Shown here: in pieces, positions 10,468-14,484 of the stretch | How positions within the stretch are numbered: the first letter of the stretch is position 1 | Layout: each line of letters starts with the position of its first letter | Assembly (NCBI GenBank): GCA_905235635.1 | Contig: CAJOMC010000013.1 | Span: 1 to 45,693 of the forward strand | Length of the DNA stretch: 45,693 bases | Reading direction: 5' to 3' | From: an uncultured Bacilli bacterium | Lineage (GTDB): Bacteria > Bacillota_I > Bacilli_A > Izemoplasmatales > UBA1188 | Translations under genes and position numbers: made by a program | Notes under the pieces: model-generated | Database searches by the model: none | What the model saw: the letters and a program-made list of their open reading frames with translations, nothing else | Told to the model about the DNA's origin: nothing

Positions 10468-11664
10468 ATGTATTACGCAATTGATAAAGATGGTAAAAGA
10501 GTTCATATTGATAATGCTCATTCAATGAATGACTATTTTTGCCCTATCTGTGGATTAAAACTAGTACTTAAAAGAGGACCAGTTATAAGCCACCATTTTT
10601 CACATCTTATAAATCAGGCATGCGTTGATAAATATCATTATGATATGAGTGAGTGGCACGAAGCACTTCAAAATTTATTCCCCGATAATACAAGAGAATA
10701 TGTATTATCAAATGGCATTAAAAGCCATAGGGCAGATGTCTTTATAGAAAAGAAAAACACAGTGCTTGAATTCCAACATTCATCTTTATCTTCTATAGAA
10801 TTTAGTGATAGATGTGATTTCTATACTTCTTTTGGCTATAACCTAGTCTGGATATTCGATCTAAGAGAAGAAGCAAAAGAAAATAAAATTTATAACTATA
10901 AAGAGAATCTATACAGATGGTTAAACCCTAAAAGAACTTTTAATAACTATCTCCCATCAAAAAATAAAAACATAGAGCTATACTTTGAACTAGAAAACGA
11001 TAAGATGGTTAAGATAATTTGGGCACCAAAAGATGGCTTTGAAAGATTTATGACTGATACAAGTATCTATAATAGAAAATATTTTGTAAATAGATTCTTA
11101 AAAAAAGAAATAATTAAATTAGTCCCTTTAAGGGATTTAAAAGATAGAATAAAGGAATCATATAAAGTTGATGGTATTTCATATTACCTTGGTTGTCCTA
11201 AAACAAATAATCATGTAGCTACACTAAATGAGTGTATAGAATGTGACTATTATCAAGGTTATAAAGACGATTATATATTATGTAACAAAAGATTCATAGA
11301 CTTAAATATAGATCTTCACACTTTAGTTGAAATAAAGAAAATCACAAATGGCTACATCACAGAAATTAAAATAGATGATAATATATATGAAATTGAATCA
11401 TATCCTAAAAGGCAAAAGAAGGATTTGTTTTCGCTCTGGAATGATAAATATAAATATATGATAGTAAAGAATATGGAGACTCTAAAATACTATCTTATTA
11501 CTAGTAATCCTAAGTCTCAGTTTGAAAAGTATAATAGGGTATATGGAAAAGTATCAAATGATAGTGAAAATTTTAGTGAGAAATCTAGTGAAATTATAGA
11601 TGTTGAAAGGGAAATTTGGATACTGTTTTCAAAGAAGAAAAAGATTAAATCACATAATTCCTAG
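10468..11664 (+). CDS. Competence protein CoiA-like nuclease
   Basis: A 398-residue protein resembling the CoiA family, which acts with RecA during natural transformation. An N-terminal zinc-ribbon-like CPICG (C25, C28) is followed by HHFSH. The nuclease-type core has HRADV (D90) and LEFQHSSLS (E101, Q103), then FYTSFGYNLVWIFDL: the D-(x)10-ExQ pattern of this PD-(D/E)XK-like fold. A second pair CxxCD occurs near ECIECDYYQGYKDDYILC. It stands alone, between a divergent esterase and the AAA ATPase, with a TATAAT box close to the ATG and no ribosome site. Its 3' end overlaps the first unit of the repeat array described next. Confidence 0.75.
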   Translation: MYYAIDKDGKRVHIDNAHSMNDYFCPICGLKLVLKRGPVISHHFSHLINQACVDKYHYDMSEWHEALQNLFPDNTREYVLSNGIKSHRADVFIEKKNTVLEFQHSSLSSIEFSDRCDFYTSFGYNLVWIFDLREEAKENKIYNYKENLYRWLNPKRTFNNYLPSKNKNIELYFELENDKMVKIIWAPKDGFERFMTDTSIYNRKYFVNRFLKKEIIKLVPLRDLKDRIKESYKVDGISYYLGCPKTNNHVATLNECIECDYYQGYKDDYILCNKRFIDLNIDLHTLVEIKKITNGYITEIKIDDNIYEIESYPKRQKKDLFSLWNDKYKYMIVKNMETLKYYLITSNPKSQFEKYNRVYGKVSNDSENFSEKSSEIIDVEREIWILFSKKKKIKSHNS

Positions 11665-11746
11665 GAAAAATGTGAAAATTATCACATAATTCTTAAGAAA
11701 AGTGTGAGAAAAATCACATAATTAGTAAAAATAATGTGATTATAAT
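11649..11746 (+). promoter_or_regulatory. Array of TGTGA-N6-TCACA sites on a 32-bp period before the AAA ATPase
   Basis: ATCACATAATT occurs three times without mismatch, at 11649, 11681 and 11713, exactly 32 bp apart. TGTGA occurs at 11671, 11703 and 11735, also 32 bp apart. Together they make two complete palindromes, TGTGA-N6-TCACA, at 11671-11686 and 11703-11718, plus half-sites at each end. A TATAAT at 11741-11746 overlaps the last half-site and a second TATAAT lies at 11769-11774. The 32-bp spacing is close to three helical turns, so bound dimers would lie on one DNA face. The half-site matches the CRP consensus, but no regulator gene is in view. Confidence 0.65.
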
Positions 11747-11797
11747 TGAATTAAGCCTCTTTATCCAATATAATATTGTTGTATAGGAGGTAGAAGA

Positions 11798-13117
11798 ATG
11801 AAACGCTTTATACTAAATGATTTAAATAACTGGAAAGACTCAAAAAGAAGAAAGCCATTAATTTTACGAGGTGCAAGACAGGTTGGCAAAACCTGGATAC
11901 TTGAAGAATTTGGCAAATCTTTCAAAGATGGATTTGTGAGAATAAACTTTGACAAAGAGCCAGAATATTCTCAGTTTTTTACAACCACAAAAGATGTTTT
12001 TAGAATTATCCAAAACCTTTCATTTGCGACAGGGCACAAGATAACTCCTGATACACTTATAATATTTGATGAAATACAATCATGTCCTGAGGCACTAAAC
12101 TCACTTAAATATTTTTGTGAGGATGCCCCAGAATACTATGTTGCAAGCGCAGGGTCTTTACTTGGTCTCGCTTTAAATGAGGGTTTTCCCGTTGGCAAAG
12201 CAGATTTTCTCGATATGGGTCCGATGTCTTTTCTAGAATTTTTAATCGCATGTGGCGATGAAAATTTATATGAATACATTAAAAGCATCAATAAAATAGA
12301 AAATATCCCAGAATTATTTCATAGTAGATTGATAGAAAAACTTAAGATGTATTTTGTGATAGGCGGTATGCCTGAAGCTGTAAAAGTGTGGGCCGAAGAT
12401 AGAGATATTAAAGAAGTAGAAAATGTACTTTTATCTATACTTGAGGCATATGAAGCCGACTTTGGCAAACATGCACCAAATAGAGACGTTCAGCGTATTA
12501 GGTTAATTTGGAATTCACTTCCATCTCAACTCGCTAAAGAGAATAAGAAGTTTTTATATAGCACAATAAGAGAAGGTGCAAGAGCGAGGGAATATGAAGA
12601 TGCACTTAACTGGCTTAAAAATGCTGATTTAGTTAAAAAAGTCTCACGAATTGAAAAACCGGGACTTCCACTTAAGTCATATGAGGATTTAACATCATTT
12701 AAGATTTATATGGGTGATGTTGGACTTCTAAGAAAACATTCAAAACTAGCGACATCTGCGTTTTTAGAAGAAAATAGACTATTTACTGAATTTAAAGGTT
12801 CTCTAACTGAAAATTATGTGCTTGAAAGCTTATTAAGCCAAAAAGACATTGAACCATATTATTGGAATAATGGTTCATATGAAGTAGATTTTATAATTCA
12901 AAAAGAGAATAACATATATCCTATTGAGGTTAAGTCAGGCACAAACATTACTTCAACTAGTTTAAAAAAATATTTGAGTAATTATAATGAGACTAAATTT
13001 GGAGTAAGATTATCTCTTAAGAATTTATCTTTTGATGGTAACATTCTAAATATTCCTCTCTATCTAATTGATGAACTTCCAAGACTAATTTCAGAAATAA
13101 ATGTGGATAAATCTTAA
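11798..13117 (+). CDS. AAA_14 ATPase with C-terminal DUF4143 domain
   Basis: A 439-residue member of the widespread AAA_14/DUF4143 family, whose biological role is unknown. Walker A is GARQVGKT (K31), Walker B LIIFDEIQ, sensor region YVASAGSLLGLAL. The C-terminal part contains ENYVLESLL, YYWNNGSYEVDFII and PIEVKSG; the last two match the D...ExK pattern of a restriction-endonuclease-like fold and are typical of DUF4143. The ribosome site AGGAGG is at 11785-11790. It stands alone with its own upstream operator array, unlike the operon-bound genes around it. Such ATPases are patchily distributed and often look accessory. Confidence 0.88.
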   Translation: MKRFILNDLNNWKDSKRRKPLILRGARQVGKTWILEEFGKSFKDGFVRINFDKEPEYSQFFTTTKDVFRIIQNLSFATGHKITPDTLIIFDEIQSCPEALNSLKYFCEDAPEYYVASAGSLLGLALNEGFPVGKADFLDMGPMSFLEFLIACGDENLYEYIKSINKIENIPELFHSRLIEKLKMYFVIGGMPEAVKVWAEDRDIKEVENVLLSILEAYEADFGKHAPNRDVQRIRLIWNSLPSQLAKENKKFLYSTIREGARAREYEDALNWLKNADLVKKVSRIEKPGLPLKSYEDLTSFKIYMGDVGLLRKHSKLATSAFLEENRLFTEFKGSLTENYVLESLLSQKDIEPYYWNNGSYEVDFIIQKENNIYPIEVKSGTNITSTSLKKYLSNYNETKFGVRLSLKNLSFDGNILNIPLYLIDELPRLISEINVDKS

Positions 13118-13194: not shown

Positions 13195-14484
13195 ATGAAA
13201 AAATTACTAACTTTAATTTTGCTATCTTTTACACTTATACTCTCGTCTTGTACCACGACTATTCCTAACGATAACTCTTTAAAATATTTAAATGATGTAA
13301 GTATGGAAATTAAGGAACAAGAAAAGAATAATTCAAGAAAAAAGATTAAAGAGGGAGATTTCTTAAATAAACTTGAAACTTTCTCATCAAAACTTAATTA
13401 TGTTGTTTATGAAGATTATTATGAAGAAGAAAATATGGTTGTATCGCCTCTTTCAGTGTTTTTTGCCTTCGCAATGGAATATGAAACACTAGAAGACGAT
13501 GATAAAATAAGTCTTCTCAACTTCCTTAATATGACAGATAGTGATTTATTCCTAGTAAAACATCTTATTAATTCACTATTACCTGTTGGTAAGGATGATA
13601 CATATAATTTAAAAATATCTAATACCATTTGGACTAATAGTGACTTAAATTATGATTATAAAAAAGATATTCTTAATACCCTATCAACTAAGCATTATTG
13701 TGGTGTAATTGAAGCTCCATTTACCAGCGATAATATCGGGGCCAATAAGGAACTAAGAGAATTTATTAAAAAGATGACAGATGGTCTTATTGATGAAGAT
13801 TTTGATATCTCTAATGATATGACCTTCCTTCTTATGAATACCCTTTATTTTAAAGATGTTTGGGGAAACAACGAGCTATCTACAAGAAAAGAAGTATTTA
13901 AAGATATATTAGGGAGTGAAACAGAACTTGACTTTAATGTGGGATACTATCATATGGGCAAGCTTCAAAGAGAAGAAAAATATGAATACACCTATATTTC
14001 TACAATGTCTGATTATAAACTCACATTTATAAGACCAAAAGATGGCTTTGAAATTAAAGACATTTATAGCGTTGATCTAATTAAAGAAGTAAATTCTCAT
14101 AAGTACTTGTATACTGATTCAGCAACAAGAACTGATTATCACTCAAGATGCATCTTCCCAACATTTAAAGTTGAATCTTCTTATAACCTAGTGGAAACAC
14201 TTTTAAAACATTATGATTTTGATAATCTATTTATTAATTACCATTCTAAATTAATAGATGAGGATATGTTTATAAGTGATGTGATACATAAGGTTGTATA
14301 TAGTGCAGATAAGAAAGGCACAGAAGGTGCCGCAGTCACAATCATTGGGAATAAAGCCACAAGTGTTGGTCCTATTAATAAACAGGTATACGAAGAATTA
14401 ATACTTGATAAACCATTTGCTTTTGTCCTCTCTAGTCCTGATGGTGTAGTTCTATTCTCAGGAATTATAAATATCTTAAATTAA
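13195..14484 (+). CDS. Lipoprotein serpin (protease inhibitor)
   Basis: A 429-residue protein with a lipoprotein signal (lipobox LSSC, C19), a short polar linker and a complete serpin domain from about residue 65. Serpin features: NMVVSPLSVFFAFAMEY, LLMNTLYFKDVWG, the hinge KGTEGAAVTII and the C-terminal signature LDKPFAFVL...GVVLFSG. The short-side-chain hinge (GTEGAAV) resembles inhibitory rather than non-inhibitory serpins. The reactive loop lies in about IIGNKATSVGP; the exact P1 residue cannot be fixed from one sequence. Surface serpins in gut bacteria are thought to neutralise host or microbial serine proteases. Strong GGAGGTG ribosome site; single-gene unit with its own promoter and terminator. 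Confidence 0.9.
   Translation: MKKLLTLILLSFTLILSSCTTTIPNDNSLKYLNDVSMEIKEQEKNNSRKKIKEGDFLNKLETFSSKLNYVVYEDYYEEENMVVSPLSVFFAFAMEYETLEDDDKISLLNFLNMTDSDLFLVKHLINSLLPVGKDDTYNLKISNTIWTNSDLNYDYKKDILNTLSTKHYCGVIEAPFTSDNIGANKELREFIKKMTDGLIDEDFDISNDMTFLLMNTLYFKDVWGNNELSTRKEVFKDILGSETELDFNVGYYHMGKLQREEKYEYTYISTMSDYKLTFIRPKDGFEIKDIYSVDLIKEVNSHKYLYTDSATRTDYHSRCIFPTFKVESSYNLVETLLKHYDFDNLFINYHSKLIDEDMFISDVIHKVVYSADKKGTEGAAVTIIGNKATSVGPINKQVYEELILDKPFAFVLSSPDGVVLFSGIINILN

What the first reader, a model, noticed from the sequence alone, without database searches (positions are those of the whole stretch)
11649..11746. Iterated TGTGA-N6-TCACA operators with an exact 32-bp period before an orphan AAA/DUF4143 ATPase
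Seen: three perfect ATCACATAATT copies at 11649, 11681 and 11713, and three TGTGA copies at 11671, 11703 and 11735, giving two full palindromes and two half-sites in strict 32-bp register that run into a TATAAT. Nothing else in the window looks like it. About three helical turns per unit suggests cooperative binding of a dimeric regulator, or iteron-like binding by a larger complex. The AAA_14/DUF4143 family has no known role, so a dedicated operator array could be the first clue to how it is controlled.
Basis: partly seen in the sequence, partly recalled or inferred. Interest (0 to 1): 0.72.

Follow-up and report, generated by a model that had tools for sequence, protein, structure and literature searches.

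The report
Self-operator arrays of PDC-S01 defence ATPases
The three repeats before this gene are one case of a pattern found across bacteria and archaea: genes of a very common, untested antiviral-defence candidate (an ATPase joined to a nuclease) carry their own tandem switch of about 32-33 base pairs per unit at the promoter, probably so that the protein can control its own production.

Summary
The array is real: three TCACA...TGTGA units, 32-bp period, window 11650-11739, abutting a TTGAAT-N17-TATAAT promoter of the AAA_14/DUF4143 gene at 11798. It is not a one-off. In about 150 further relatives of this ATPase (genomes, plasmids, virus-labelled contigs; bacteria and archaea) the best self-match lag in the 200 bp before the gene is 32 or 33 bp in 20/21, 59/93, 18/28 and 27/35 genes of four sets, against 2-14% in controls. 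The unit differs between paralogues of one genome, occurs nowhere else in that genome where tested, and follows the ATPase, not the host: relatives at 50-70% identity share it in Bacillota, Fusobacteriota and a virus-labelled contig. PADLOC assigns the protein to PDC-S01, reported as the fourth most common defence across prokaryotes, validation pending. Best explanation: each ATPase binds its own three-helical-turn array through its winged helix and controls its own promoter (binding inferred, not shown). The CRP-like look (TGTGA-N6-TCACA) is a trait of the window's subclade. The genome's single CRP-type gene has such a site in its own promoter and could cross-bind, but CRP cannot explain the family. 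I found no description of these arrays in the papers searched.

The parts
11650..11675 (.). unit 1: TCACATAATTCCTAGGAAAAATGTGA (26-bp imperfect palindrome)
11682..11707 (.). unit 2: TCACATAATTCTTAAGAAAAGTGTGA
11714..11739 (.). unit 3: TCACATAATTAGTAAAAATAATGTGA
11671..11686 (.). dyad TGTGAAAATTATCACA between units 1 and 2
11703..11718 (.). dyad TGTGAGAAAAATCACA between units 2 and 3, 32 bp from the first dyad
11735..11751 (+). half-site TGTGA, 6 bp, then the -35 element TTGAAT in the place where TCACA would stand
   Evidence: L205 has the same arrangement TGTGA-N6-TTGACA
11746..11774 (+). predicted promoter TTGAAT-N17-TATAAT (-35 11746-11751, -10 11769-11774)
   Evidence: consensus match only
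11785..11790 (+). ribosome-binding site AGGAGG
   Evidence: by eye
11798..13117 (+). AAA_14-DUF4143 ATPase, 439 aa, PADLOC PDC-S01; Walker A GARQVGKT, Walker B IFDEIQ, winged-helix-like region 228-305, PD-(D/E)XK-like C-terminal domain with invariant E362, E377, K379
   Evidence: Pfam; PADLOC; AlphaFold2 mean pLDDT 95; conservation

Best explanation
The array is the promoter-proximal self-operator of a single-gene defence candidate (PDC-S01). SHOWN: relatives of this ATPase across bacteria and archaea carry a tandem array of 32-33-bp units immediately before the gene, reaching or overlapping the promoter; the unit is specific to the ATPase subclade, differs between paralogues in one genome, occurs nowhere else in that genome in the cases tested, and goes with the gene between distant hosts. 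INFERRED: the ATPase binds these units through its winged-helix region, one protomer or dimer per three helical turns, so neighbours lie on one face of the DNA and can contact each other. The assembly covers or abuts the -35/-10 and represses its own transcription, keeping a potentially harmful AAA+/nuclease low. Loss of occupancy (titration by other DNA, nucleotide state, or dilution after infection or transfer) would de-repress it. In the window's subclade the unit happens to be a CRP-like dyad, TGTGA-N6-TCACA.
For: Best self-match lag over 10..79 bp in the 200 bp upstream is 32 or 33 in 20/21 genes of the order, 59/93 in a second set from named genomes and the class, 18/28 in virus-labelled contigs and 27/35 in a paralogue set, six of which were already in the class set. 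Controls: 6% of Markov shuffles, 8% downstream of the gene, 3% in the first 200 bp of the CDS, 2% at -400..-200, 14% before other ORFs of the loci. Among matches of 13/16 or better, 61/68, 19/20 and 30/31 lie at 32/33 or 64-66. Where a promoter could be called, all 62 arrays reach within 15 bp of the -35 or beyond. Operator similarity rises with protein identity (36%, 68%, 83% of pairs at 50-60, 60-70, 70-90% identity) while flanking DNA stays at 4-6%. Same-genome paralogues are no more alike in operator than pairs from different genomes. In the window's genome the units of two other paralogues occur only in their own arrays, 4 copies each at exact 33-bp steps. TGTGA-N6-TCACA at 32-bp period recurs in a Clostridia relative (L205, 66% id) and a Fusobacterium plasmid (L350, 58%), in a well-supported subclade. 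The model's best PDB matches are archaeal AAA+ ATPases 2qen and 2fna, then ORC subunits, a DNA-binding family.
Against: No binding or expression data. Segment-by-segment covariation does not single out the winged helix: residues 306-350 do as well or better (AUC 0.73 against 0.70, AAA 0.65). About a third of validation genes have no tandem array at lag 32/33 by this measure; some of these carry a long inverted repeat instead, others (e.g. L227-L234) nothing detected. One operator copy (G047:C87) stands before an unrelated gene with no ATPase on that contig. Placement varies: upstream of -35 (window), over the promoter, or downstream of -10 (G043), so activation is not excluded.
Confidence: 0.66

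Rival explanations
1. The window array is a tandem operator of the genome's CRP/FNR-type regulator, which activates or represses the ATPase gene.
For: The genome has one CRP-type gene found; a perfect TGTGACATTTATCACA lies 12 bp before its start; its recognition helix has R-E-N-V-S-R where E. coli CRP has R-E-T-V-G-R (CRP from general knowledge). Its G001 relative has TGTGATAAACATCACA before it, while same-genus regulators with an N-R-P-S-L-S-R helix have GTAACATATGTTAC, so this CRP type plausibly reads TGTGA.
Against: The same operator stands before the 55%-identical ATPase in G043, whose CRP is of the other type, and in G076 and G047, where no CRP-type gene was found in 89-90% complete genomes. 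Other paralogues and phyla have non-TGTGA units with the same 32-33 bp period. No other CRP-like site in this genome has the 32-bp iteration.
Confidence: 0.15
2. Phased A-tracts or UP-like elements: the repeats bend DNA or help RNA polymerase and have no dedicated protein.
For: Many units hold A/T runs; the period is about three helical turns; some arrays end at or just before the -35.
Against: Unit identity extends over 15-20 bp including non-A/T positions (CCGGGGAAAATGTGA, TCCCTTGAAAAA). Lags of one or two turns (10-11, 21-22) are not enriched, only 32/33 and their doubles. Units are subclade-specific.
Confidence: 0.07
3. The array is not a transcriptional operator but the working platform of the ATPase-nuclease, an origin-like or immunity site to which the protein must be loaded, with regulation as a by-product.
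For: Best folds are archaeal AAA+ ATPases and then ORC subunits; iteron-like direct repeats next to the gene of their presumed binder; presence on plasmids.
Against: Consistent promoter placement; most loci seen are chromosomal or of unknown replicon; no replication gene beside the gene in the window or the four plasmid loci read.
Confidence: 0.1

Closest known systems
PDC-S01 (PADLOC phage defence candidate, single gene 01)
   Same: Window protein matches PDLC04786 with E=1.9e-176 over residues 1-428; literature describes an ATPase fused to a PD-(D/E)XK domain, fourth most common defence across prokaryotes, validation pending for most PDCs (PMC12988326); most frequent single locus in rumen genomes (PMC13356809).
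   Different: I found no mention of operators or promoter repeats: the archaeal paper has no occurrence of promoter, operator, direct repeat or autoregulation in its main text; only three papers held name PDC-S01. The source preprint (10.1101/2024.01.29.577857) is not held and was not read.
Iteron arrays of plasmid Rep initiators and DnaA/ORC-type AAA+ initiators (general knowledge)
   Same: Tandem direct repeats next to the gene of their presumed binder; AAA+ fold with a winged-helix-like region.
   Different: 32-33 bp period; no replicon or origin function shown; PD-(D/E)XK-like domain present; placement at the promoter.
Regulators of defence operons: BrxR/WYL proteins, CapW (PMC9122601, PMC9122589, PMC9122588, abstracts only)
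   Same: Control of an antiviral system at transcription.
   Different: Those are separate regulator genes; here the defence ATPase itself is proposed as regulator, and no regulator gene is next to the window gene.
CRP/FNR operator TGTGA-N6-TCACA
   Same: Consensus half-sites and N6 spacing in the window subclade.
   Different: Iterated at 32 bp, found where no matching CRP was found, replaced by other sequences in sister subclades.

Membership tests
PDC-S01 / AAA_14-DUF4143 | HMM match over the whole protein | tested here: met
   PADLOC E=1.9e-176; DUF4143 132 bits, cut-off 28.1; AAA_14 84.3 bits, cut-off 27
PDC-S01 / AAA_14-DUF4143 | Walker motifs and PD-(D/E)XK-like residues intact | tested here: met
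   G25, R27, G30, K31, D91, E92, E362, E377 and K379 invariant in 59 sequences
PDC-S01 / AAA_14-DUF4143 | protects against phage | not testable with these tools
   no assay; literature says validation pending for most PDCs
PDC-S01 / AAA_14-DUF4143 | sits among defence genes (a discovery criterion, not a defining one) | tested here: not met
   window neighbours typed by Pfam are carboxylesterase, CoiA-like, serpin, HAD phosphatase and YqeH-like GTPase; other loci vary, e.g. beside type III R-M on a Glaesserella plasmid
CRP/FNR-regulated promoter | TGTGA-N6-TCACA dyad | tested here: met
   two exact dyads
CRP/FNR-regulated promoter | matching CRP present wherever the homologous operator is found | tested here: not met
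   G043 CRP is of the GTAAC type; none found in G047 and G076
Plasmid iteron/Rep origin | Rep-family initiator next to the repeats and origin function | tested here: inconclusive
   no Rep domain in the adjacent proteins scanned; origin function not testable here
Self-operator of the ATPase | operator sequence co-inherited with the protein and dedicated to it | tested here: met
Self-operator of the ATPase | direct binding by the ATPase | not testable with these tools
   needs gel shift or footprint

The most novel reading that the evidence does not exclude
PDC-S01 is a self-contained switch: an archaeal-ATPase/ORC-like AAA+ nuclease that polymerises on its own three-helical-turn array, each paralogue insulated from the others by a private unit sequence, so that array occupancy is the sensor that turns a very widespread antiviral candidate on.
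Probability: 0.25. Interest if true: 0.92.

Novelty: new variant of a known kind. Interest (0 to 1): 0.82.

Why it matters
PDC-S01 is reported as one of the most common antiviral candidates in prokaryotes, yet how it is controlled is unknown in the papers found. A family-wide, gene-specific operator gives a handle: it predicts what the protein binds, how paralogues in one genome (at least nine DUF4143 genes here) avoid cross-talk, and offers a natural reporter for when the system switches on. It makes 'what does DUF4143 read?' directly testable with a gel shift.

Tried and rejected
CRP/FNR as sole explanation: first favoured because the single CRP-type gene found carries the same site in its own promoter, then rejected as the general cause by genomes without a matching CRP and by the non-TGTGA paralogue arrays. 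Chance tandem duplication: rejected by recurrence of the same period in independent gene sets. RNA hairpin or terminator reading of the palindromes: not pursued, because most sister arrays are direct, non-palindromic repeats. TCACATTATT...AATAATGTGA sites before a DUF1189 gene in G006 and G003 looked like the same element, but relatives in G000, G001, G002 and G004 lack them; left as unrelated. PF13635 at phylum level mostly returned another DUF4143 subfamily (MYIKR / MI.RT starts), of which only 2/28 have lag 32/33. Mapping of operator specificity to protein segments was only suggestive. PDB sequence search gave only distant AAA matches.

Full report
CHECK. The array is as described. Its units lie at 11650-11675, 11682-11707 and 11714-11739, and the two internal dyads are TGTGAAAATTATCACA and TGTGAGAAAAATCACA. 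It begins in the last 15 bp of a CoiA-like gene and ends before a TTGAAT-N17-TATAAT promoter. The composite pattern occurs nowhere else in the genome.

FIRST LEAD, CRP. The genome has one CRP-type gene found, with a perfect TGTGA-N6-TCACA just before its start. Relatives support a matching of recognition helix and site: R-E-N-V-S-R with TGTGA sites (G000, G001), N-R-P-S-L-S-R with GTAACATATGTTAC (G002, G005, G006). But the nearest ATPase homologue found in the order (G043, 56%) has TGTGA-N6-TCACA-N16-TGTGA at its promoter while its CRP is of the other type, and G076 and G047 have the operator without any CRP-type gene found. CRP therefore cannot be the general answer.

TURN. Reading upstream of the more distant paralogues showed tandem repeats at the same spacing with quite different units: 4x CCGGGGAAAATGTGA, 4x CCTAACTTTTTGCAAAT, TTGCAAATATGCATAT and GGGGCAAATTGCCCC in this genome alone. 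A blind measure (best self-match of a 16-bp window over lags 10-79 in 200 bp upstream) gave lag 32 or 33 in 20/21 genes.

VALIDATION. The measure was then applied to further sets: 80 loci from named genomes across bacteria and archaea, class-level loci, virus-labelled contigs and multi-paralogue genomes (six of these 35 were already in the class set). Results: 59/93, 18/28, 27/35. Strong matches (13/16 or better) fall at 32/33 or 64-66 in 61/68, 19/20 and 30/31 cases. Controls lie at 2-14%; the 14% upstream of other ORFs is above the shuffles, and I did not trace why. The archaeon Methanocalculus (L235), a Chlamydiae MAG (L276), a gammaproteobacterial MAG (L278) and Bacteroidales are included. 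Some organism labels are those of metagenome bins.

OWNERSHIP. Operator similarity tracks protein identity, with flanking DNA as negative control. Within a genome paralogues have unlike operators. Two paralogue units of this genome, searched with up to two mismatches, hit only their own arrays, four times each at exact 33-bp steps. The TGTGA dyad at 32-bp period is shared by the window, L205 and a Fusobacterium animalis plasmid, and the tree puts most dyad carriers in one supported subclade; L214 (Muribaculaceae) carries it outside that subclade. Tandem arrays occur on both sides of the midpoint-rooted tree, so they may be ancestral. One subclade has long inverted repeats over the promoter instead.

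PROTEIN. Pfam AAA_14 + DUF4143; PADLOC PDC-S01. AlphaFold2 gives a confident model. Foldseek finds archaeal AAA+ ATPases 2qen and 2fna first (TM 0.43/0.53 and 0.42/0.51), then ORC subunits. Residues 228-305 look like a winged helix, with variable positions 264, 265, 268, 271, 274 and 275 on the helix 263-275; whether these read the DNA is inference.

MECHANISM. Autoregulation by the ATPase on its own array is the simplest reading of a cis element that is private to each paralogue, moves with the gene and sits on the promoter. Repression is favoured because arrays overlap or abut the -35/-10, but activation is not excluded. Nothing here shows binding.

LITERATURE. One held paper mentions DUF4143 and three name PDC-S01; in the archaeal survey no promoter or operator is mentioned. 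Only free-licence papers were searched and the source preprint was not available, so novelty is 'not found', not 'proven'.

Noticed in passing
L103, L105, L143 against L100, L106: Within one genus the CRP-type regulator beside an ABC-transporter lipoprotein gene exists in two specificities: R-E-N-V-S-R helix with TGTGA-N6-TCACA and N-R-P-S-L-S-R helix with GTAACATATGTTAC in its own promoter region.
   Followed up: partly
G047:C87 (L051) 1522-1558: A near-identical copy of the G043 operator and promoter stands before a 348-aa gene with a secretion-signal-like start and no Pfam match, with no ATPase gene on the 5-kb contig.
   Followed up: no
L174-L203: The other DUF4143 subfamily (MYIKR / MI.RT starts) lacks the 33-bp period; several upstream regions show, by eye, an inverted repeat from the -10 to the ribosome-binding site (e.g. 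GACTATAATC...ATAGTCGGAGG).
   Followed up: partly
L050, L101: In G043 and G076 the ATPase gene is followed by a hemerythrin-PAS protein; in G009 and G014 a CRP/FNR gene and a DUF438 or DUF438-like PAS gene flank a TGTGA dyad.
   Followed up: no
window 13195-14484: Bacterial serpin-family protein with a lipoprotein-like start, directly after the ATPase gene.
   Followed up: no
L239, L246, L253, L254, L257: A subclade of the same ATPases has a 45-55 bp inverted repeat over the promoter instead of a tandem array.
   Followed up: partly
L351: On a Glaesserella parasuis plasmid the relative stands beside a type III restriction-modification system.
   Followed up: no
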